The notes below the pieces were generated by a model. That model had not been told where the DNA came from. It saw nothing but the letters and a program-made list of their open reading frames with translations, and did no database searches. 20,125 nt of DNA from the IMG/VR virus record IMGVR_UViG_3300027754_000540, positions 1-20,125 of that record, one strand, 5' to 3'. This DNA is from a virus. Positions within the stretch are counted from its first letter, which is position 1; every line of letters begins with the position of its first letter. A program made the position numbers and the translations under genes. Shown piece by piece: positions 7,686-20,125 of this stretch.

Positions 7686-8430
7686 AGTTGAAATTCATAT
7701 CAAATTCAGGAGTATTTTCCTTTATATTCGTTCGTAAAGATAAACTATCTCTAGATGTAAGCTCGTTTTCAATAAAATTACGAATTTCTGCTTTATCTTC
7801 ATTTCCATTTACAGAAGTAATAACGAACTTTAATCTGGTAGTAAGCTCATTCGATCCACCATTTTTGTAAAGTTTAGCCGAAGACTTGAGTTCTGAATCT
7901 ATCGCTTTATCATCTTGATGTGTCAACAATTTATAAGTAACAACCTTCTTACAATACGGCAGTGTATATTCAAATCTGTTTTGATGCGGGGTATACTTTG
8001 AAGTATCCAGTTCTTTAGGCTTAAGTTCTCCCAAATTAATGTTAACCGATGTGTTTTCACTACACTTAACACACTTTACATCAAGTGGACCATAATTGTC
8101 ACCATACGCTAAACGTCGTGACGCTACATATAATGCGTTTTTATCACACAACAATACGTCATCTAATTTGATATTCTTATCAACTATCAAACTCTCCAAC
8201 AACTTGTCCAAAACTATACCCTTTTTAATGAGGTTTTGATTCATTAATATATCTTCCTCACGAGCAGTCATCATCTTCATTTCAACCTGACCAGTGCTCA
8301 ATATGTGATTCTCAGGATAAAAATGACCTTCACTCGGAAGATCAATCATTTCAGTTGGGTATGTAGTCTCCTTCTTGTTGTTAGAAGGTGGAGTTTGCCG
8401 CGTAATTGGTACTATAAAATTTTCATTCAT
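7609..8430 (-). CDS. 26: Baseplate hub/tail assembly protein, gp26-like (T4_baseplate family)
   Basis: A 273-residue protein with the layout of T4 gp26-type proteins. It has YPTEMIDLPSEGHFYPENH (about 24-42), followed by VEMKMMTAREEDIL (49-62), the family's most recognisable block. Two CxxC pairs, C120/C123 and C251/C254, could bind zinc. It ends in VPLTVSFFWPNT, the FFWP ending I expect for the family. In T4, gp26 takes part in building the central baseplate hub. The FFW codons lie in a TTT TTT TGG run where a second reading frame overlaps. The start is the ATG at 8430, which is preceded by 59 bases of AT-rich sequence without a clear Shine-Dalgarno sequence. The C-terminus looks complete, so the overlapping frame is more likely a partner than the severed end of this protein. 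Confidence 0.8.
   Translation of the reverse strand: MNENFIVPITRQTPPSNNKKETTYPTEMIDLPSEGHFYPENHILSTGQVEMKMMTAREEDILMNQNLIKKGIVLDKLLESLIVDKNIKLDDVLLCDKNALYVASRRLAYGDNYGPLDVKCVKCSENTSVNINLGELKPKELDTSKYTPHQNRFEYTLPYCKKVVTYKLLTHQDDKAIDSELKSSAKLYKNGGSNELTTRLKFVITSVNGNEDKAEIRNFIENELTSRDSLSLRTNIKENTPEFDMNFNFVCEHCSAEERMGVPLTVSFFWPNT
7623..7662 (-). promoter_or_regulatory. Possible frameshift signal: T7 slippery run with adjacent hairpin
   Basis: On the coding strand the gp26-like frame reads TCC TTT TTT TGG, with seven T at 7623-7629. Just upstream, AAAGGA can pair with TCCTTT and the inner TACC with GGTA, around a TCTCAC loop with a TGGGGG bulge. The hairpin therefore overlaps the start of the T run. 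A GGAGG sequence lies about 29 bases upstream. Moving into the ATG-less frame needs a +1 or -2 shift. The sequence elements are seen directly; their function is inference. Confidence 0.35.
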
Positions 8431-8489
8431 AACTTTGATATATATATTCTACACCAATATATATAATAAAAGTATGATTTTTGGTTATT

Positions 8490-8870
8490 TTATTTTTTAC
8501 CAATATTAGCCGCAGCAGCTTGCGCCAGACCAGTAGCCGCCGTACTTGCCTTTTTTTGTAGATTTAACTCAGCAACCTTACGCGAAAGATCTTTAATTTC
8601 AATTTCAACTTCTTTTCTCTTTGCGGGATCCGATGAAGATATTTGCTGTTTTAATTTCTGCTTACCCGCAACCTGCTTTTGAACAGCGGTAATTTTAGCC
8701 AAAATAGACAACACTTCCGCCTTTTTTGCAACCGCCAATTTTTCTTTTTCATTTTTTCCTGCCGATACTACCTTCGGATCGCTGTCTATTGAAGAATCGT
8801 CTGATTCAGATTCAACAATCTTTTGAAAAATTCGTTTTACAAACAGTCTGGTGTTTTCTTTATCTTGCAT
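8490..8870 (-). CDS. Small coiled-coil protein of unknown function
   Basis: A 126-residue hydrophilic protein. Residues about 40-110 are Lys-, Glu-, Ala- and Leu-rich with heptad-like spacing (AEVLSILAKITAVQKQVAGK, then VEIEIKDLSRKVAELNLQKK), which suggests a coiled coil. The C-terminus is an Ala-rich TAATGLAQAAAANIGKK. An acidic Ser/Asp stretch (ESESDDSSIDSD) lies near residues 20-31. No enzymatic motif, membrane segment or cysteine is visible. It lies between a nuclease gene (stop 15 bases upstream) and the gp26-like gene. A tail assembly or virion-associated role would fit the position, but I do not recognise the family. The start is the ATG at 8870, with no clear ribosome binding site. 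Confidence 0.55.
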   Translation of the reverse strand: MQDKENTRLFVKRIFQKIVESESDDSSIDSDPKVVSAGKNEKEKLAVAKKAEVLSILAKITAVQKQVAGKQKLKQQISSSDPAKRKEVEIEIKDLSRKVAELNLQKKASTAATGLAQAAAANIGKK

Positions 8871-8885
8871 ATCTATAAGTATATC

Positions 8886-10835
8886 TCAATTTTGGTTATA
8901 TTCGTATAAAATATGACCGCAATCCCAAATACGATCATATCCATTTAATTTCATGTTTTCCCACTCACTTAAAGATTTATCAAAATGTTTTAATTTTTTT
9001 TCCAAAGTATGCTTCGCAAACCCAAATCTGTGAAATCTAATGTCTTCTCCAACCCTAAAATACCAATAATTAGGATCGGTATCCTTACTCCTCTCAAATT
9101 TCATCTTTTCATATAAATTACCTACGCTATATCGTTTGTCAGCGTAAGTAACCACTTTCTTGGGTTTGTATATCTTAACAAACGCGTCAAATAACTTGCT
9201 CGCAATACCCACAATTCTTTTATTAGTAGCAAACCGCAATAACTCATACTCACCATCCATTGATGATTTTTTTCCCATCGCAACTCGCCTCTTACCAAAT
9301 GTCATAACCGCAACCAATTCATTATTATAATACGCCCCAAATTTAATTGATGCAGGACAATTCCCCTGTACATGATTGTTGTTCAAAAAATATTCACAAT
9401 CACGTATTTCAGTTAGTTTACACTTTCTCGCATATATAGACTTTTCATGGTTCTCACACAATATATGACGCAATTTATCTTTAACAATCTGCTTGCGGTA
9501 TACCCACTCATCCTCAAAAATATGAATCAATCGTATACCCTTTTTATTACATATATCAGTTTTATTTAAATGATATTTTCTTGATTTTCCACCATTGCTT
9601 TCACTGTGCCAAAATAATCCGTTATATTCTATAGCAACTTTCTTGTACGGTATATAAACATCCAACTCTAACCCATCTAATATATCTCTATTGTTTTCAA
9701 CCACATTATCAACACCAACCAAACTTTTTACATACTCACCAATCTCCCTCTCATTCAAACTAAAACCCGCAATATAAGGTTCACACTTCAAACACCGAGG
9801 CAAATGCCCGCCGTCAATGTGATCCTCAAATATATCGTCACATTTTTTGCACTGAAATTTATATTTGTTTTGTTTGTTAGTGTCAATATAATCATCCAAT
9901 TCAAAACAAGCAATACAGTTGCTTTTTTCATTTATTCGTTTTATAATGGAAATATATAATGTTTTCTTCAATGTAATCATCATTTTTTTCTTCAACTCTG
10001 GTCCATTTACGGGTATCTTTGTTCCATATTTTTGAATATTTTCCTCATAAACGTTGTCCATTGTTTCTTTGTGTTGAAAAATGTTATCAACCCCATAATT
10101 TTTTTGAAAAGTTTCCTTAACCTTATCTTTAATTTCATCGGACTGTGATGCATTTGGTACCCCATATTTTTCTATGTTTGATGCTTCACTTTTTTGTTGA
10201 AAATTTTCACTTTGAAAAAAACAATCTACGCCGTATTTTTCTATGTTTGTAGCCTTTGCTTTATCCACAATTTGCTTATATTTAAACACGTTATCAACCC
10301 CATATTTTTCCAAACATGTCTGTTTAGCTTTTTCAGCATTAACATATGCTGAATTGCCATACTTTTTAAGCTTGGTTTGCTTTATTTTATCAATCCGATC
10401 GGGTTGGCTCGCAACATACACACCGCTACATTTGGCATCACAACATTTTTGCTTTCTGAAAATTAAAGACTCAAATTCATTATTACAAACCAAACATTTT
10501 TTGGTCTCATAATAATGATGACGAGTTTGTTTGTTTTTCTCAATCATCGTCTGTGACCTTTGATTAGCAGTTGAACGATTACTACACTTTTTACTGCAAT
10601 ACTCTGTATACCCGACCAGAAATGACTTGAATTTCGTTTCTTTGTTACATTGTTTACATTTTCCTGCCCCATGAATGTGTTGATACAATTTCTCACCAAA
10701 AGTGTTTCCGTTATATTGTATGTTAATTGTTTCGTAAAAAGACTTGTGACGAGCCTTGATTATTTGAACATAAACATCAGGCTTCTCATTGATCAATTTT
10801 AATATTTCTTCGTTAGTCATCTTATATACTTTCAT
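8886..10835 (-). CDS. Large homing-endonuclease-like protein: zinc fingers, KYG repeats, EDxHD-type nuclease, GNAT/Mom-like C-terminus
   Basis: A 649-residue protein. I place the start at ATG 10835 (MKVYKMTNEE) or 10820. The frame is open further upstream, but that would run through the tail tube terminator and into its gene. Domains in order: cysteine clusters C60/C63, C80/C84, C114/C117 and C131/C136 (zinc-finger-like); six KYG-type repeats at 158, 177, 200, 223, 246 and 269; further CxxC pairs 307/310, 329/332 and 348/351; a nuclease core with E390-L-D392, E403, H410, H422 and the block from H438 to E443 (HIFEDEW), which resembles the EDxHD/Vsr-like homing endonucleases; and a C-terminal domain at about 480-600 with ELLRFA, GIASKLFDAFVKIY, VVTYAD and LYEKMKF, resembling GNAT or Mom-type enzymes. 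It is paralogous to the gene at 11526-13037. Probably a mobile free-standing nuclease; DNA cleavage is inferred from family knowledge. Confidence 0.75.
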   Translation of the reverse strand: MKVYKMTNEEILKLINEKPDVYVQIIKARHKSFYETINIQYNGNTFGEKLYQHIHGAGKCKQCNKETKFKSFLVGYTEYCSKKCSNRSTANQRSQTMIEKNKQTRHHYYETKKCLVCNNEFESLIFRKQKCCDAKCSGVYVASQPDRIDKIKQTKLKKYGNSAYVNAEKAKQTCLEKYGVDNVFKYKQIVDKAKATNIEKYGVDCFFQSENFQQKSEASNIEKYGVPNASQSDEIKDKVKETFQKNYGVDNIFQHKETMDNVYEENIQKYGTKIPVNGPELKKKMMITLKKTLYISIIKRINEKSNCIACFELDDYIDTNKQNKYKFQCKKCDDIFEDHIDGGHLPRCLKCEPYIAGFSLNEREIGEYVKSLVGVDNVVENNRDILDGLELDVYIPYKKVAIEYNGLFWHSESNGGKSRKYHLNKTDICNKKGIRLIHIFEDEWVYRKQIVKDKLRHILCENHEKSIYARKCKLTEIRDCEYFLNNNHVQGNCPASIKFGAYYNNELVAVMTFGKRRVAMGKKSSMDGEYELLRFATNKRIVGIASKLFDAFVKIYKPKKVVTYADKRYSVGNLYEKMKFERSKDTDPNYWYFRVGEDIRFHRFGFAKHTLEKKLKHFDKSLSEWENMKLNGYDRIWDCGHILYEYNQN

Positions 10836-10869
10836 ATATAAGTATAATCCATTTAGTGAAAAAGTCAAC

Positions 10870-10905
10870 AAAAAATCCTCTTTATACTTTAAATAAAGAG
10901 GATTT
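10870..10905 (-). terminator. Rho-independent terminator after the tail tube gene
   Basis: A perfect 12-bp stem (10873-10884 with 10894-10905, AAATCCTCTTTA and its complement) with a 9-base loop. Read on the minus strand it is followed by six T (10870-10875). It lies 21 bases after the tail tube stop and 35 bases before the nuclease start, so it would separate the highly expressed tube gene from the nuclease. Confidence 0.8.
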
Positions 10906-10926
10906 GAAAGAAATATGTAGAAACAA

Positions 10927-11418
10927 TCAATATTGGAGCACGCAATAATCCACCGCAATCGTAATACCGACTGTAAGAGGTTCCCCCGAATCAGTATAGT
11001 CACCTTCACCGAAATCGGCGTTCGTAATAAAGGCTCCTTTTAATGTCCATTCACTCACTTTATCTCCGACAGGTCCTAGAATATTTAGAGTGAGATCCTT
11101 TTTGTAGAAATCACTATATCCATCTCTTCCGGTAACCGACTCATGTGACAATCGTATCCACTCCATGATTGCTTGAGCGCCGCTTGGAACGATGGGGTTA
11201 TATAGTTCCATGGTGATATCGTCCCAAGTGGTTCGACCCTTATAGTATCGTTCTTGGTTGATGTGTTGTATGGTTTTCTTTTCGCTTTTTACGGTTGGGA
11301 GTTTGCATTTTCTTACGAGGAAGCTTGGAATGCCGTCCGCGTATAGCACAAAGCGATTTTTGACTTGTGGTTCAAAATTCGTGTAGAATATCTCATTACT
11401 GTTCAATAAATCTGCCAT
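10927..11418 (-). CDS. 19: Tail tube protein, gp19-like
   Basis: A 163-residue protein, the same length as T4 gp19. It begins MADLLNSNEIFYTNFEPQVK and continues NRFVLYADGIPSFLVRKCKL, the expected N-terminal pattern (N-R-F ... G-I-P-S-F ... K-x-x-x-P). The middle contains WDDITMELYNPIVPSGAQAI followed by MEWIRLSHE, and the C-terminus has WTLKGAFITNADFG followed by a strand with TVGITIAVDYCVLQY. Gp19 rings polymerise into the inner tube through which DNA passes. The gene has its own terminator and a 107-base upstream gap shared with a divergent nuclease gene, so it is probably transcribed on its own, as expected for a protein needed in many copies. Two related nuclease genes flank it. No strong Shine-Dalgarno sequence is seen. 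Confidence 0.92.
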   Translation of the reverse strand: MADLLNSNEIFYTNFEPQVKNRFVLYADGIPSFLVRKCKLPTVKSEKKTIQHINQERYYKGRTTWDDITMELYNPIVPSGAQAIMEWIRLSHESVTGRDGYSDFYKKDLTLNILGPVGDKVSEWTLKGAFITNADFGEGDYTDSGEPLTVGITIAVDYCVLQY

Positions 11419-11525
11419 AAAGTTTATATAGTTTTGTTATTTGTTTACATAAAATAAATATCATGAAATATTAATTTTTTAGGTTTTTTTATAAAATATT
11501 TAATAGTTATTCAATATAAGAATCA
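11419..11525. other. Divergent AT-rich intergenic region between tail tube and nuclease genes
   Basis: The 107 bases are almost all A and T and must hold the starts of both the tail tube transcript and the plus-strand nuclease transcript. ATATTTAT occurs on the minus strand at 11454-11461, 36 bases before the tail tube ATG. No convincing -35/-10 pair or Shine-Dalgarno sequence is visible for either gene. Confidence 0.4.
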
Positions 11526-13037
11526 ATGTATATTTATATGTCTAGAAAACTTAATAAAAAATTTTGGTTGACTGTGAATTGTAAACACTGCAACAAACAA
11601 TTTATGTGTAGGATATCAAAGCCTCGCATTTTTTGTGGTATAAAATGTTCATCCAGCGATGTGGATTTAAATAAGCAAAGATTGAAAAACCAAAAACAAA
11701 CAAACCTTGATCGTCACGGAGGTCATCATATGAAAAGTGGTGGTGTTGAAAAATGCAAGGCTACCTTATTAGTTAAATATGGTGTTGACAGTTATAGCAA
11801 ATTACCTGAATACAGAATTCGTGTGAAAAAAACATTATTTGAAAAATTTGGGGATGAAAATTATTTAAATGTAGAAAAAGTTAAAAAAACATGTTTAGAA
11901 AGATACGGAGTTGATAATATATCAAAATTAAATCGTGTGTCAGAAAAGACATCTGAAACTAAAAAATCAAACCATTATGATTTTTTATTGGATCACTGCA
12001 AAGAAAAATCTCTTGAATTTTTGTGTGACAAAGAAAATTATAATGGGTATCATTTTAGCAATATTTATAAAATTAAATGCAATGTTTGTTTAAAAACATT
12101 TGAAAGCACGGTTTATAACTTGCATAATATTTTTTGTGATTATTGTGATCCCGAGAAAATTACGTCTGTTGAGAGTCAATTTTATAGATTCTTGCAAGAA
12201 ATTTTGGACAAAGATGTTGTTATAAAAAGAAATGATAGAACGATATTAAATGGCAAGGAATTGGATTTTTATATACCCGAATTAAAGATTGCGTTTGAAA
12301 TAAATGGGTTATATTGGCACAGTGAATTTGCGGGCGGGATAAATAAAAATTATCATCTCAACAAAACGAAATCTTGTATGCATTACGGTATCACGCTTGT
12401 TCATATTTTTGAAAATGAATGGATTCATAAATCGGATATAGTAAAATCGGTAATCAAATCTTTGTTAAATTTGACAAAAGCTAAAATTTATGGTAGAGAG
12501 TGTATAATAAAAGAAATAGATATAAAAGCTAAAAATGACTTTCTTGCAAAAAATCATTTACAGGGTGAAGATAAATCAACAGTAAAGCTTGGGTTATATA
12601 AAGATGAAAATCTTTTGAGTGTGATGACATTTAGAAAAGCTTCAAGATTTGAAAAAACAAGTGAATGGGAATTAGTTAGGTTTTGCACATTAATTGATAC
12701 TGTTGTAATAGGTGGAGCGAGTAAATTACTATCATATTTTATAAAAACTTATCATCCAAAAAATATTGTGACTTATAGTGATCGTAGATTTTTTACCGGC
12801 AAAATTTATGAAACATTGGGATTTAGATTTGTTGATATCACGCCATGTGGGTATTATTATATCATAAATAAATACAAAGACTTAAGACACAGAATGTCTT
12901 TTCAAAAACATAAAATAAAGAATTTTTTAAACGTGTTTGATTCAAATTTATCAGAATGGGAAAACATGAAAAACAATGGATATGACCGAATTTGGGATTG
13001 TGGTAACAATAAATACTACTTAAAGTTATCAGATTGA
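11526..13037 (+). CDS. Homing-endonuclease-like protein, paralogue of the 8886-10835 gene, opposite strand
   Basis: A 503-residue protein on the strand opposite to the tail genes. The start is ATG 11526, or ATG 11538 (MSRKLNKKF). The order matches its paralogue: cysteine cluster C19/C22, C37/C41; KYG-type repeats at 63, 84, 107 and 126; CxxC pairs 185/188 and 204/207; a nuclease core with E245-L-D247, E258, H265, H277 and H293-I-F-E-N-E298; and a C-terminal domain with WELVRF, GGASKLLSYFIKTYHP, IVTYSD and IYETLGF. Both proteins end with a near-identical LSEWENMK-NGYDRIWDCG motif. It has fewer repeats and a shorter zinc-finger region than the 649-residue protein. The 3' end overlaps the convergent nucleotidyltransferase gene by 9 bases. 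The region is visibly AT-richer than the tail genes, consistent with transfer. A site-specific DNA nuclease is likely; the target is unknown. Confidence 0.75.
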   Translation: MYIYMSRKLNKKFWLTVNCKHCNKQFMCRISKPRIFCGIKCSSSDVDLNKQRLKNQKQTNLDRHGGHHMKSGGVEKCKATLLVKYGVDSYSKLPEYRIRVKKTLFEKFGDENYLNVEKVKKTCLERYGVDNISKLNRVSEKTSETKKSNHYDFLLDHCKEKSLEFLCDKENYNGYHFSNIYKIKCNVCLKTFESTVYNLHNIFCDYCDPEKITSVESQFYRFLQEILDKDVVIKRNDRTILNGKELDFYIPELKIAFEINGLYWHSEFAGGINKNYHLNKTKSCMHYGITLVHIFENEWIHKSDIVKSVIKSLLNLTKAKIYGRECIIKEIDIKAKNDFLAKNHLQGEDKSTVKLGLYKDENLLSVMTFRKASRFEKTSEWELVRFCTLIDTVVIGGASKLLSYFIKTYHPKNIVTYSDRRFFTGKIYETLGFRFVDITPCGYYYIINKYKDLRHRMSFQKHKIKNFLNVFDSNLSEWENMKNNGYDRIWDCGNNKYYLKLSD

Positions 13038-13703
13038 TTTCTGATTATCGTATGATTTGACCGCAGCATTTCGTAATTTGTCTAGATGTCCTCTGTTGCG
13101 AAGTAATTTAAAAACTAGATTTTCATTACTTAATTCGCCTTTTCTGTCTAGTCCTTGTTGTCGGAGGTCGTATATATCTTTTAATACTTGTTTTATGCGT
13201 TCGAGATTATTTTCTTTGATTGCGCCATTAATTTTTGAAAGAGAATCGTTATACTTTAATTGAATTAATTGTTGATCTACTTCAAAATTTTCATATTTTG
13301 GATTGGTTATCCAGCTTCCTGTGAGTAGTGAATAAACTCCACTGGATCTATTTATTTTTGTGACGTTCTGAATATACACCTCGACATTATATCCGTGTAA
13401 GTGAATGTCATGTTTGTTGTTCCAGTCTGATTTTAATCCATTAACATACTTTTCAACCAATTCAATGTTTGAATCTACATTTTTAAAATCTATCACCAGG
13501 TGAACATCGAGATCACTATTCTTTGACCAGTTATAATTAGCGAGGCTTCCTACGAAAAGTATATCTCTAACAGGAGCAGTTAATTCAGTTTGTTTATAAA
13601 AATCATTCGCAATTTCCGTGAGTTTTTGTCGAATCTCTTTTTTGAGAATCATTCCATCCCATACGTCAGGACTTAGATTTGTGTTATATATTTGAAATTT
13701 CAT
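13029..13703 (-). CDS. Nucleotidyltransferase-fold protein (pol beta superfamily)
   Basis: A 224-residue protein with the minimal nucleotidyltransferase signature. G52-S53 (FVGSLANYNW) is followed by D64 and D66 in NSDLDVHLVID, and a third acidic residue, E108, sits in the strand YNVEVYIQ. These match the metal- and nucleotide-binding residues of the family. C-terminal to this is a helical region (about 140-220). The family adds nucleotides to proteins, RNA or small molecules; the substrate here cannot be read. The start ATG overlaps the stop of the HAD gene (ATGA), so the two are translationally coupled and may act in one pathway. Similar pairs occur, in my recollection, in other T4-like phages. 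The 3' end overlaps the convergent nuclease gene by 9 bases. An intact active site suggests a functional enzyme. Confidence 0.75.
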   Translation of the reverse strand: MKFQIYNTNLSPDVWDGMILKKEIRQKLTEIANDFYKQTELTAPVRDILFVGSLANYNWSKNSDLDVHLVIDFKNVDSNIELVEKYVNGLKSDWNNKHDIHLHGYNVEVYIQNVTKINRSSGVYSLLTGSWITNPKYENFEVDQQLIQLKYNDSLSKINGAIKENNLERIKQVLKDIYDLRQQGLDRKGELSNENLVFKLLRNRGHLDKLRNAAVKSYDNQKSI

Positions 13704-14332
13704 AGATTTGTTCGACTATATCCACAGGTTTCTTTAATAATCGACAATGTTGCATTGAGTTCTTTTATGGTTTGATTTGCGTCTCTGAACACAATACCCT
13801 CACCTCCTGATGCAATAAAAGATTCTACATTCTTATAAAGATCATCTATCAACACACTCGACTTGGTAGCGAATCTAGCTTTATCGGTTCCAGAATCGGC
13901 GTAGTTTATAACATAACCAGATAAGTGTTTATCGATCCAATCTTTCTTGCCTGTTTCTATTTCTGAGATTCTCATTTCTGCCTCTTTCTTGAAATTTTGA
14001 CGAAATTGATCAGCACTTGTGCTGGTAAGAATTTGAATTTTTATATTTGGATTCTTTGATAATTCTGTGATATATTTTTTTAATATATTAAAGTCTGGCA
14101 TTGGATCCATTTGGTTCCAGAATTTTACGCCGTGATTTGTTATAATTTCCCAAAATTTAACTGTTCCCCTTTTTCTTTCAAACGATATGGGTTCTTCGTT
14201 AGTAAAATGAACAAACTGTTTGTCAAAGTCACATAAAACACCATCCATATCAAAGTATACAGTGATGATTTGTTGTTCTTCTAAAAGATTTGCATCCTGC
14301 ACTTCTTTTACTAAGTCCTTTAATCGAATCAT
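13700..14332 (-). CDS. HAD-superfamily phosphatase, 5'-nucleotidase-like
   Basis: A 210-residue protein with the HAD motifs. Motif I is YFDMDGVLCDF with D28 and D30 as nucleophile and acid/base; motif II is ILTSTS (101-106); a lysine region follows (KKDWIDKHL, 129-137); motif IV is SVLIDD with D163/D164 binding magnesium. Between motifs I and II is a FW-rich helical cap (FWEIITNHGVKFW). Size and pattern fit deoxyribonucleotidase-type 5'-nucleotidases, which dephosphorylate nucleoside monophosphates, but the substrate is inferred. The first 20 residues (MIRLKDLVKEVQDANLLEEQ) lie before the domain and resemble a T4 capsid-targeting peptide. Translation is coupled to the nucleotidyltransferase. 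The start is ATG 14332, with an ATATTTAT element 6-13 bases upstream and no Shine-Dalgarno sequence. Confidence 0.8.
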   Translation of the reverse strand: MIRLKDLVKEVQDANLLEEQQIITVYFDMDGVLCDFDKQFVHFTNEEPISFERKRGTVKFWEIITNHGVKFWNQMDPMPDFNILKKYITELSKNPNIKIQILTSTSADQFRQNFKKEAEMRISEIETGKKDWIDKHLSGYVINYADSGTDKARFATKSSVLIDDLYKNVESFIASGGEGIVFRDANQTIKELNATLSIIKETCGYSRTNL

Positions 14333-17159: not shown

Positions 17160-20125
17160 TTATAGGTTCGTGCTAACTAGAGCTTGTGATACAACGGTTC
17201 CTATCCAAACAGGTGTAACAGCCCCTCCTTTATAACTAGTTAACATAAATACGTCTGCATAACCACTTGTTGCGGTGATTGATGGAGTTACAGCATTTGC
17301 CCATATTACGTCTGTAAATGTAACAGTAGCAGCACCGTTATATTTTAGTACCAACATTACTGTATTTACATGTGGATTGTTATCTCTGTTACCGTATGTT
17401 AAACCTGATATTACGGCAGAACTAGAAAGGGACAAAATGTGTACAGCACCATTTGATAAATCAATCGAACAGGATGCTGAGCCTGACAATGATTGCGTTG
17501 TGCTTCTTTGTACAAGTTTCGCACTGGTATAGATAGATCCACTTACATCAAGTGACCCACTAGGATTTAATGTTCCAATACCAACTCTACCAAAACTACT
17601 TGTTCCACTTGCACTTATATTGCTTGCGGTTAAATTGGTAATATTATAAGAATTGCCGACAACCAAACTAGATGCAGTCAAACTGTTACTTGCCCACGAA
17701 GATGTACCAAAAAAATTACTAGCCGTGATAACACTGCAACTGATATTGCCAGCAACATCTAATCTATTTACAGGACTCGTAGTCCCGATCCCAAAGTTTC
17801 CAGTTGAACTAAATCGTCCCACTTCTGCAAACGACGAACCTGATGGTCGAGTAAAGAATGACATTGCACCCTGATTTGTACTACTATTTTCATGTATAAA
17901 CATTATTCCCGCAGATGTACCGAATGAGGAGTTTTGACCTGAAATAGATGAGTAAACATTGGCAGTTGAATCGGTATTTCGTAGGAGTATTGATCCACCT
18001 GCTCTATTCTGACCATAAGCAGTGTCTGTATTACTGTTTGTACCTATAATCGATAGACCAGAAAATGTTGTTGGACTTGTAGCGGTGTTTGTTATTGAAG
18101 CAATTGCTACTGATGATGACGCAATAATAGTTAATGGAGACGTCGGCGTCGTTGTACCTATTCCAATATTCCCGCTTCCACTTACAAACAATAATCCATT
18201 GCCACCGGCTCCTTTTATATTCAATAAACTTGCGGCGGTACTACTACTCAATTCCAATAAAGCACCAGGACTCGTTGTGCCGATGCCGACGTTGCCCGAG
18301 CTTTGTGCAATTACAAAAGGATAAGTTCCTGCCGTTACATCTCGTATTGTGTAACTGGATTCGTTTACTGTGGGTATACCAACATCCGTAACCCAACTAA
18401 AACCCCCTGATGTATTTCTTATACGAAAACCAGAGGAGTTTACGACAACTGCGCCGTGTTCTAATGTAAGAAGTGATAATGGTGTCGTTGTCCCGATGCC
18501 GACGTTACCAAAACCACCTGTTCCGCTTGCACTTATATTTGACGCGGTTAAATTTGTAATATTATAAGAATTGCCAACAACCAAACTAGAAGCAGTCAAT
18601 GCATTAGTTGCCCAACTACTTGTTCCAAAAACACTTCCAGTATGTGCTCCTACAAATATACTTGCGCTAACGGTTCCTAATGTAGAAACACCAATTACAT
18701 TTAATGTACCGGCTCCATAAATATTACTTGCGGTCACAACGCCGCTTGCACTTAATGTATTATTTAAAACAGTTGCGCCAAGCACAGTCAATGTACTATT
18801 TAAACTACTTGCGCCAGTTACTGACAATACACCAGGAAAAGCGGTTGTCATACTTCCACCACCGATAGTGATTGCGTTCGCACTCGCAAACAATGTTGCG
18901 CCGGTTAAAGGACAATCAATCGTGCCTAAATTTACATGTAATGTTCCGTTTGCCCTAATATTACTTGCGGTTAAATTTGTTATTGTATAATTATTTGATG
19001 TTACCAAACTAGATGCAGTCAATGCATTAGTCGACCATGATGCGGTAATAGTTGTAGGAGCAGAACTCGCACTTAATGCATATGAAGCACTTGTAACAGT
19101 TCCAACTATGTTACTTGATGTAATATATGAAGCCGTCAAAGCATTAGTTGCCCAACTTGATGTTGCATTCAATGAACCACTAATACTCACACTACCCGTA
19201 AATTGATGTGTATTTGTTGATGTAAATCCAAATCTACTGCTTCCACTTACATCCAATAAATAAGCAGGACTTGTTGTGCCGATGCCGAAGTTGCCTGCAG
19301 AATCGATCCTCACCTTCTCGCCCTCAGCAACATTAAATCGGAATGTGCCGCCTGATGGCACATTGTGATAGAAGTTAGTTGTTGACCCACCCGCTCCAAT
19401 ATATCGAGTTGCAGCGGAACTTCCTGCACCAAGTCCGATAGGGCCGCCGGGATTGCCGCCCAATACCCAACCTCCCAATGAAGTGAAAGATCCGCTGATA
19501 TCAAGGAGTTGACTGGGACTTGTTGTTCCGATTCCGACGCTGCCAGAAATTAATAATCCATTATTGAGTGATGCCGTGGTTCCAATACTCAATCCACCAT
19601 CAATCATTAAATTAAATGCAGTTGCTCCAAAAGTTCCCCAATTTGTATTTGGCAATGATACAGTACCCAATCGCAATTGATTGACACTCGATGTAGTTAA
19701 TTGACCCAACCCCATCCACGAAGCAACTCCGTTAAATATAAATTGTGGACGTGTTGTGCCACTAGTTTGATAATTACCAAAAACTAATTGTGCGGGTGTT
19801 ATAGACGATACATTGTATGGACCAACTTGAATATTTCCAGATGATGTAATTGTTCCAAAACTTCCAGTTGCACTCGTACTTATATTACTTGCGGTTAAAT
19901 TTGTAATATTATAAGAATTGCCAACAACCAAACTACTTGCCGTTAAACTGTTTGTTGACCAACTACTTGTGCCAAAGAACGAGGCAGTAACTGCACTGCA
20001 ACTTATGTTTCCCGCAACATCAAGTTTGTTTAATGGTGTATTAACACCAATACCAACACGACCACTGCTTGTAATAAACATTACACTTCCACTACCTAAT
20101 GCAACATCACTACCACCCGATTGAA
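17160..20125 (-). CDS. Long repetitive tail fibre protein, N-terminus cut by window edge
   Basis: The frame stays open past the internal Met at 20081 to the right edge (upstream codons read QSGGSDVALGSGSV), so the gene starts outside the window and at least 988 residues are present. It contains eight GIG-x-x-x-P modules (for example GIGTTSPSQLLDISGS and GIGTTSPVNRLDVAGN), a known beta-helical or triple-stranded fibre shaft motif, alternating with LTASNI blocks. The last 130 residues form a different domain (LSGSASCSIDLSNGAVHILS, then a strand-rich end with VWIGTVVSQALVSTNL), probably the distal tip. No peptidase S74 chaperone domain is visible at the C-terminus. Fibres bind the host surface. 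A lectin-like gene and an assembly-chaperone-like gene follow in the same operon. Confidence 0.85.
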   Translation of the reverse strand, partial: QSGGSDVALGSGSVMFITSSGRVGIGVNTPLNKLDVAGNISCSAVTASFFGTSSWSTNSLTASSLVVGNSYNITNLTASNISTSATGSFGTITSSGNIQVGPYNVSSITPAQLVFGNYQTSGTTRPQFIFNGVASWMGLGQLTTSSVNQLRLGTVSLPNTNWGTFGATAFNLMIDGGLSIGTTASLNNGLLISGSVGIGTTSPSQLLDISGSFTSLGGWVLGGNPGGPIGLGAGSSAATRYIGAGGSTTNFYHNVPSGGTFRFNVAEGEKVRIDSAGNFGIGTTSPAYLLDVSGSSRFGFTSTNTHQFTGSVSISGSLNATSSWATNALTASYITSSNIVGTVTSASYALSASSAPTTITASWSTNALTASSLVTSNNYTITNLTASNIRANGTLHVNLGTIDCPLTGATLFASANAITIGGGSMTTAFPGVLSVTGASSLNSTLTVLGATVLNNTLSASGVVTASNIYGAGTLNVIGVSTLGTVSASIFVGAHTGSVFGTSSWATNALTASSLVVGNSYNITNLTASNISASGTGGFGNVGIGTTTPLSLLTLEHGAVVVNSSGFRIRNTSGGFSWVTDVGIPTVNESSYTIRDVTAGTYPFVIAQSSGNVGIGTTSPGALLELSSSTAASLLNIKGAGGNGLLFVSGSGNIGIGTTTPTSPLTIIASSSVAIASITNTATSPTTFSGLSIIGTNSNTDTAYGQNRAGGSILLRNTDSTANVYSSISGQNSSFGTSAGIMFIHENSSTNQGAMSFFTRPSGSSFAEVGRFSSTGNFGIGTTSPVNRLDVAGNISCSVITASNFFGTSSWASNSLTASSLVVGNSYNITNLTASNISASGTSSFGRVGIGTLNPSGSLDVSGSIYTSAKLVQRSTTQSLSGSASCSIDLSNGAVHILSLSSSAVISGLTYGNRDNNPHVNTVMLVLKYNGAATVTFTDVIWANAVTPSITATSGYADVFMLTSYKGGAVTPVWIGTVVSQALVSTNL
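17626..17669 (-). repeat. Tail fibre DNA repeat, copy 1 (44 bp)
   Basis: Same 44-bp unit as the copies at 18544-18587 and 19891-19934, with two mismatches to them. It encodes part of SLVVGNSYNITNLTASNI and lies 918 bases (306 codons, in frame) from copy 2. Confidence 0.8.
18544..18587 (-). repeat. Tail fibre DNA repeat, copy 2 (44 bp)
   Basis: Identical over all 44 bases to the copy at 19891-19934. It lies 1347 bases (449 codons, in frame) from it. A fourth, more degenerate copy lies near 18957-19021. Confidence 0.85.
19891..19934 (-). repeat. Tail fibre DNA repeat, copy 3 (44 bp)
   Basis: Identical to copy 2. Recombination between the two would remove or add 449 codons without breaking the frame. 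Confidence 0.85.

What the first reader, a model, noticed from the sequence alone, without database searches (positions are those of the whole stretch)
8886..13037. Nuclease fused to a GNAT/Mom-like C-terminal domain in two paralogues
Both large nucleases carry, after the EDxHD/Vsr-like core, a domain reading ELLRFA/WELVRF, G-A-S-K-L, VVTYADKR/IVTYSDRR and LYEKMKF/IYETLGF. This matches the order of GNAT motifs and especially the 'Y-A-D ... G ... Y ... F' block of phage Mu Mom, a DNA base-modifying enzyme. A protein that both cuts and chemically modifies DNA, or uses a modification-like fold to recognise its site, would be unusual for a homing nuclease.
Basis: partly seen in the sequence, partly recalled or inferred. 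Interest (0 to 1): 0.62.

Follow-up and report, generated by a model that had tools for sequence, protein, structure and literature searches.

The report
DNA-cutting phage gene with DNA-modifier domain
Two selfish DNA-cutting genes beside a phage tail gene each end in a domain that is a true relative of phage Mu's DNA-modifying enzyme Mom and still carries most of its active-site residues; the fusion has been noted before, but whether these proteins also modify DNA, perhaps to shield themselves, is untested.

Summary
ORF A (8886-10835, minus, 649 aa) and ORF B (11526-13037, plus, 503 aa) are paralogous free-standing 'Hef-like' homing endonucleases: two Zn-finger-like Cys4 clusters, YG(V) repeats (DUF7487), an EDxHD/I-Bth0305I-type nuclease core, and a C-terminal domain. 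That domain has a GNAT fold. Mu Mom (8bv8) is the best PDB match to the B model, ahead of every other GNAT; the domain of B alone passes Pfam's cut-off for Mom; profile comparison with 45 Moms gives E 2.8e-10, controls nothing. Seven Mom-invariant residues, including H58, E108, R111, D149 and Y159, are near-invariant in 83 relatives; S124 is kept in most; Y59, N121, E123 and N163 are not. The domain is as constrained as the nuclease. Both genes flank the tail tube gene and are optional: relatives lack A or B, and 42 tube loci lack both.

The architecture is not new: Iyer et al. 2021 described Mom-REase fusions in jumbo phages (including PA5oct, which matches here) as restriction-modification; U5 Hef, annotated as a homing endonuclease, has the same domain. 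Catalysis is untested. My favoured reading, a homing endonuclease whose Mom domain marks DNA, perhaps for self-protection, is open and testable.

The parts
8886..10835 (-). ORF A, free-standing Hef-like homing endonuclease, 649 aa from ATG at 10835 (707 aa if the upstream GTG is used)
   Evidence: (phrog_3339 E 3e-123)
9444..9764 (-). ORF A: EDxHD/Vsr-like nuclease core (residues ~358-464)
   Evidence: (3r3p I-Bth0305I E 0.0066)
9012..9443 (-). ORF A: Mom-like GNAT domain (residues ~465-608)
   Evidence: (H, E, R, G, S, D, Y kept)
8889..9011 (-). ORF A: conserved C-terminal tail (SEWENMKLNGYDRIWDCG)
11526..13037 (+). ORF B, free-standing Hef-like homing endonuclease, 503 aa
   Evidence: (phrog_3339 E 6e-114)
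11580..11648 (+). ORF B: N-terminal Cys4 cluster (C19 C22 C37 C41), zinc-finger-like
   Evidence: nearly invariant columns
11706..11975 (+). ORF B: YG(V) helical repeats (DUF7487, PF24308), likely DNA-recognition part, variable
   Evidence: conservation
12078..12146 (+). ORF B: second Cys4 cluster (C185 C188 C204 C207), zinc-ribbon-like
12165..12479 (+). ORF B: EDxHD/I-Bth0305I-type nuclease core; D247, E258, H265, K280 kept in 82/83 relatives
   Evidence: 3r3p TMt 0.71; E 2.6e-6
12480..12911 (+). ORF B: Mom-like GNAT domain (residues 319-462); H344, E382, R385, G396, S399, D419, Y428
12912..13034 (+). ORF B: conserved C-terminal tail (SEWENMKNNGYDRIWDCG)
10927..11418 (-). Tail tube gene (gp19-like) lying between the two HEGs; candidate target region
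   Evidence: phrog_4542 E 1e-24
8878..10752 (.). Segment absent from the close relatives L005 and L006 (a 28-codon 5' remnant of ORF A remains)
11420..13035 (.). Segment absent from the close relative L084 (replaced by ~78 bp): empty site for ORF B

Best explanation
ORFs A and B are free-standing homing endonuclease genes of the Hef type. The N-terminal Cys4 clusters and YG(V) repeats most likely read the target DNA, probably in or near the tail tube gene between them. The EDxHD core cuts. The C-terminal domain is a Mom-family GNAT acyltransferase that keeps most of the Mom active site and most likely still acts on a DNA base, modifying the target or its neighbourhood. The simplest use is self-protection: genomes that carry the element become marked and are spared, unmarked rivals are cut and repaired with a copy of the element. 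Shown: fold, Mom relationship, retained residues, strong purifying selection, free-standing site, presence/absence in relatives. Inferred: acyl-CoA binding, base modification, self-protection, and the cleavage target.
For: Fold and profile: Mu Mom is the top PDB match and the reverse search agrees; Pfam Mom above cut-off, PHROG_1384 in 33/45; hhalign with controls. Residues: HEG H344, G356, E382, R385, D419, R421, Y428 = Mom H58, G72, E108, R111, D149, R151, Y159, each invariant or nearly so in both families; 80/83 HEGs keep all of H, R, D, Y; 11 columns conserved in both against chance P 4e-4. S399 aligns with Mom S124, whose alanine mutant is called inactive in the title of 8bv8; S in 65/83, G in 16/83. 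Nuclease residues kept in 82/83. Constraint: in ORF A dN/dS is 0.05 and 0.02 in the Mom-like domain, 0.08 and 0.06 in the nuclease, 0.13-0.35 in N-terminal and middle parts. Over 83 relatives the mean top-residue frequency is 0.59 for the Mom-like domain, 0.60 for the nuclease, 0.46 for the repeats. Mobility: 73/73 B-type genes with a tube gene in their locus lie upstream of it on the opposite strand; 42 tube loci with at least 2 kb on both sides have no HEG; L005/L006 lost A, L084 lacks B; F-LimVIII of LIMEstone1 sits the same way beside gp19. U5 Hef carries the domain.
Against: No biochemistry. Mom's Y59, N121, E123 and N163 are not kept. D419 is replaced by N in U5 Hef and L290, and by A in Valrath and XapPhi3, so part of the family may have lost or shifted activity, and U5 Hef is reported active as a homing endonuclease (Sandegren 2005, from memory; paper not held). 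Conserved cleft residues could serve DNA binding or base flipping alone. In the closest ORF B pairs the N-terminal repeats are no less constrained than the Mom-like domain. No modified target or methylome was available. Model coordinates could not be inspected, so clustering of the residues in one pocket is inferred from the GNAT topology.
Confidence: 0.5

Rival explanations
1. Homing endonuclease in which the Mom-like domain no longer catalyses but serves as a DNA-binding or base-inspecting module (bends or flips DNA, places the nuclease).
For: Phage homing endonucleases routinely carry extra DNA-binding modules (PMC3943268). Mom's Y59, N121, E123 and N163 are lost, and D419 is lost in several members including U5 Hef.
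Against: The conserved columns coincide with the Mom active-site positions and are near-invariant over 83 diverse members plus deeply diverged ones, while the variable, target-specific part appears to be the N-terminus. The loop before helix 3 (GGAS / GIAS) still resembles a GNAT CoA-binding loop.
Confidence: 0.34
2. A single-chain restriction-modification weapon of the phage: the Mom domain modifies phage DNA, the nuclease attacks host or superinfecting phage DNA (proposal of Iyer et al. 2021); homing is secondary or absent.
For: Published interpretation for jumbo-phage Mom-REase fusions; PA5oct is said to have five such enzymes (PMC7824862), and five places in PA5oct match ORF B.
Against: Sporadic, sited beside conserved virion genes, often antisense, with decayed remnants and empty alleles in close relatives: the pattern of a homing element. 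U5 Hef is annotated as a homing endonuclease.
Confidence: 0.13
3. The Mom resemblance is chance or only generic GNAT likeness.
For: Sequence identity to Mom is only 18%.
Against: Mom ranks above all other GNATs by fold, curated Pfam threshold passed, control alignments score far lower, shared invariant residues.
Confidence: 0.02

Closest known systems
Hef-like free-standing homing endonucleases (phage U5 hef; F-LimVIII of LIMEstone1; PHROG_3339)
   Same: Same overall family and C-terminal domain; free-standing; F-LimVIII has the same position and orientation beside the tail tube gene.
   Different: Under 60% identical to any phage record; U5 Hef has N in place of D419. Two divergent copies flank one tube gene here.
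Jumbo-phage Mom-REase fusions of Iyer et al. 2021 (PA5oct, five copies)
   Same: Same architecture; PA5oct member matches ORF B at 40% identity over 76% of its length and is the top viral fold match.
   Different: Here the genes lie in a T4-like tail cluster, with empty sites that point to homing rather than a resident R-M system.
Phage Mu Mom (PF25680, PDB 8bv8)
   Same: GNAT fold, H58/E108/R111/S124/D149/Y159 equivalents present in both window proteins.
   Different: Y59, N121, E123, N163 absent; fused to a nuclease; Mom's C-terminal part replaced by a tail with NGYDRIWDCG.
EDxHD homing endonuclease I-Bth0305I (PDB 3r3p)
   Same: Catalytic core fold and sequence.
   Different: 3r3p holds the catalytic domain only; no Mom-like domain is known for it (own knowledge).

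Membership tests
EDxHD-type homing endonuclease | Vsr/PD-(D/E)xK-like EDxHD catalytic core | tested here: met
   hmmsearch of the family profile finds 3r3p E 2.6e-6; fold match TMt 0.71; D247, E258, H265, K280 in 82/83.
EDxHD-type homing endonuclease | Optional gene between conserved genes, present or absent in close relatives | tested here: met
   L005/L006 lack A, L084 lacks B at 82-91% nucleotide identity of the flanks; 42 tube loci without HEG.
EDxHD-type homing endonuclease | Cuts the allele that lacks the gene and is copied into it | not testable with these tools
   Needs a cleavage assay and mixed infection.
Mom family (PF25680) | Profile score above the curated cut-off | tested here: met
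   Domain of B alone 27.9 bits against 27.1; full-length B 24.6 falls below; full-length A gave no hit; 26/45 members match at E 0.01.
Mom family (PF25680) | GNAT fold closest to Mom | tested here: met
   8bv8 chains are ranks 1 and 2 in the PDB.
Mom family (PF25680) | Residues invariant in stand-alone Moms (H58, Y59, S60, G72, E108, R111, N121, E123, D149, Y159, N163 and others) | tested here: inconclusive
   H58, G72, E108, R111, D149, R151, Y159 kept; Y59, S60, N121, E123, N163 not kept. A branch related to Mom rather than an orthodox Mom.
Mom family (PF25680) | Methylcarbamoylation of DNA adenine; acetyl-CoA and iron binding | not testable with these tools
   Needs purified protein and mass spectrometry.
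Single-chain restriction-modification system (type IIG-like) | Modification of the same sites that the nuclease cuts | not testable with these tools
   Both active sites appear intact, nothing more.
Intron- or intein-borne homing endonuclease | Host intron or intein | tested here: not met
   No Rfam intron in the window or around the genes; both ORFs lie between genes.

The most novel reading that the evidence does not exclude
A self-protecting homing endonuclease: one polypeptide that cuts unmarked DNA at its target and, through an active Mom-type acyltransferase, adds a bulky group to adenines so that genomes carrying the gene are spared. Homing immunity would then rest on a chemical mark instead of a changed sequence.
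Probability: 0.33. Interest if true: 0.82.

Novelty: new member of a known kind. Interest (0 to 1): 0.46.

Why it matters
Free-standing phage homing endonucleases must avoid destroying their own genome. If the Mom-like domain is active, hundreds of 'Hef-like' genes are nuclease-modifier hybrids and the mark could be their self-immunity, linking homing with restriction-modification. It would also give many new enzymes for a rare DNA base chemistry so far known mainly from Mu Mom.

Tried and rejected
Generic GNAT likeness alone: rejected because Mom outranks all other GNATs and control alignments fail. A decayed vestigial domain: rejected by low dN/dS and invariant residues. Intron-borne element: no intron found. 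Divergent Jersey-type members in viral contigs: only two loci. NCBIfam gave no family. Papers by Sandegren 2005 (Hef) and Taylor 2011 (I-Bth0305I) are not held; no held paper on 8bv8 or Mom residues was found.

Full report
Observation. The window is a 20,125-bp virus record holding a T4-like tail gene cluster on the minus strand. ORF A (8886-10835, minus; 649 aa from the ATG) and ORF B (11526-13037, plus; 503 aa) are paralogues at 35% identity that lie on either side of the tail tube gene (10927-11418). Both hit PHROG_3339 'homing endonuclease' with E below 1e-113 and DUF7487 in their N-terminal part.

Anatomy. An alignment of 83 relatives shows two Cys4 clusters (B: C19/C22/C37/C41 and C185/C188/C204/C207), YG(V) repeats between them (B has three, A about five), a nuclease core with invariant D247 and H265, then the C-terminal domain with invariant R324, H344, R374, E382, R385 and G396, and a conserved tail (NGYDRIWDCG). 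The core is EDxHD type: the family profile finds I-Bth0305I 3r3p at E 2.6e-6, and the fold match has TMt 0.71.

Fold of the domain. The AlphaFold2 model of B has mean pLDDT 93.9 and a GNAT order of strands and helices in residues 327-447. Foldseek against the PDB puts both chains of Mu Mom (8bv8) first, E 1e-6 and 4e-6; other GNATs start at 1.7e-4. From a Mu Mom model, the first proteins after the stand-alone Moms in the viral library are endonucleases of this family, E 3e-9 to 2e-8, while named generic acetyltransferases come in at 1e-5 or worse. By sequence, the domain of B alone exceeds Pfam's cut-off for Mom, 26 of 45 members match Mom, and 33 of 45 match PHROG_1384. hhalign with 13 Moms gives E 2.8e-14 and with 45 Moms E 2.8e-10; reversed, shuffled and other-domain controls give E 0.01 or worse.

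Active site. Of Mom's invariant residues, the HEG family keeps H58, G72, E108, R111, D149, R151 and Y159 as H344, G356, E382, R385, D419, R421 and Y428, all at or above 95%. H, R, D and Y are all present in 80 of 83. S399 aligns with S124, whose alanine mutant is named inactive in the title of 8bv8; it is S in 65 and G in 16 of 83, and S in both window proteins. Y59, N121, E123 and N163 are not kept. In thirteen aligned full-length proteins (A, B and deeply diverged phage members such as Jersey, MEW1, Sasha, Thermus TMA, Cr30), H344, R385, G396 and Y428 are invariant; D419 is A in Valrath and XapPhi3 and N in U5 Hef. My recollection that H48, R101, S114, D139 and Y149 (numbering minus 10) were mapped as Mom active-site residues (Karambelkar et al. 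2020) is a lead, not a test; the paper was not held.

Constraint. Mean top-residue frequency is 0.59 in the Mom-like domain and 0.60 in the nuclease, 0.46 in the YG(V) repeats. For ORF A, dN/dS of the Mom-like domain is 0.05 and 0.02, lower than the nuclease (0.08, 0.06) and than the N-terminal and middle parts (0.13-0.35). For the closest B pairs the domains do not differ clearly, 0.05-0.17. So target choice probably resides in the N-terminus, and the Mom-like domain does something constant.

Mobility. All 73 B-type loci that include a tail tube gene have the HEG upstream of it on the opposite strand; most A-type loci with a tube gene have it downstream on the same strand; 42 tube loci with at least 2 kb on each side have neither. 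These counts are of contigs, some of them near-identical, not of independent events. Against the window, L005 and L006 align through 8306-8877 and again from 10753 on, so A is gone but for 28 codons followed by a stop; L084 aligns through 8306-11419 and again from 13036, so B is missing. In LIMEstone1, F-LimVIII lies in the same place and orientation beside gp19. Other members sit by portal or terminase, major capsid, or within a tape-measure gene. This is how free-standing phage homing genes behave (PMC2988022).

Mechanism. Best reading: a homing endonuclease whose Mom-type domain is still an enzyme, most simply for self-protection. Architecture and Mom relationship: about 0.97. Homing element: about 0.85. 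Active base modification: about 0.5. Self-protection as its purpose: about 0.33. The chief rival is a DNA-binding use of the old fold. From memory of the abstract of Sandegren et al. 2005 (not held), U5 Hef cut DNA of its own phage as well as of phages without the gene; if that was done on unmodified PCR DNA it would be compatible with protection by modification, but U5 Hef is also one of the members with D419N. Both points need the paper and a bench test.

Relation to the known. Iyer et al. 2021 (PMC7824862, section 3.4.7; [quoted passage not shown] Five PA5oct places match ORF B, and a PA5oct 'putative homing endonuclease' is the top viral fold match, so it is most likely the same family. 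Some phage annotations also say 'nuclease/acetyltransferase'. The architecture is therefore known; what this work adds is the residue-level comparison with Mom, the constraint, and the homing-type distribution, which favour a homing element over a resident R-M system.

Noticed in passing
10927-11418 with 8886-10835 and 11526-13037: Two divergent paralogous HEGs flank one tail tube gene, A downstream on the same strand and B upstream on the opposite strand; the same pair recurs in over a dozen other IMG/VR contigs (14 of 73 B-type loci, 20 of 29 A-type loci with a tube gene).
   Followed up: yes
L005:1089-1172, L006:2228-2311: Decayed ORF A: only the first 28 codons remain, then a stop, beside otherwise 89-91% identical DNA; a remnant of the homing gain-and-loss cycle.
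   Followed up: yes
L007 against window 8886-13037: ORF A is about 71-86% identical in protein while the adjacent tube and ORF B are about 92%, which suggests replacement or faster change of A.
   Followed up: partly
13029-13703 (-): MNT-like nucleotidyltransferase (palm domain PF22600 just below cut-off) whose 3' end overlaps the 3' end of ORF B by 9 nt; beside it a 5'(3')-deoxyribonucleotidase gene (13700-14332).
   Followed up: partly
17160-20081 (-): Large repetitive fibre-like protein with recurring NSYNITNLTASN and VGIGTTSP modules and no Pfam match.
   Followed up: no
L289 (phage G8/U5 Hef) and L290; L379 (Valrath) and L385 (XapPhi3): The Mom-like domain has N (U5, L290) or A (Valrath, XapPhi3) in place of D419; natural variants useful as controls for a catalytic test.
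   Followed up: partly
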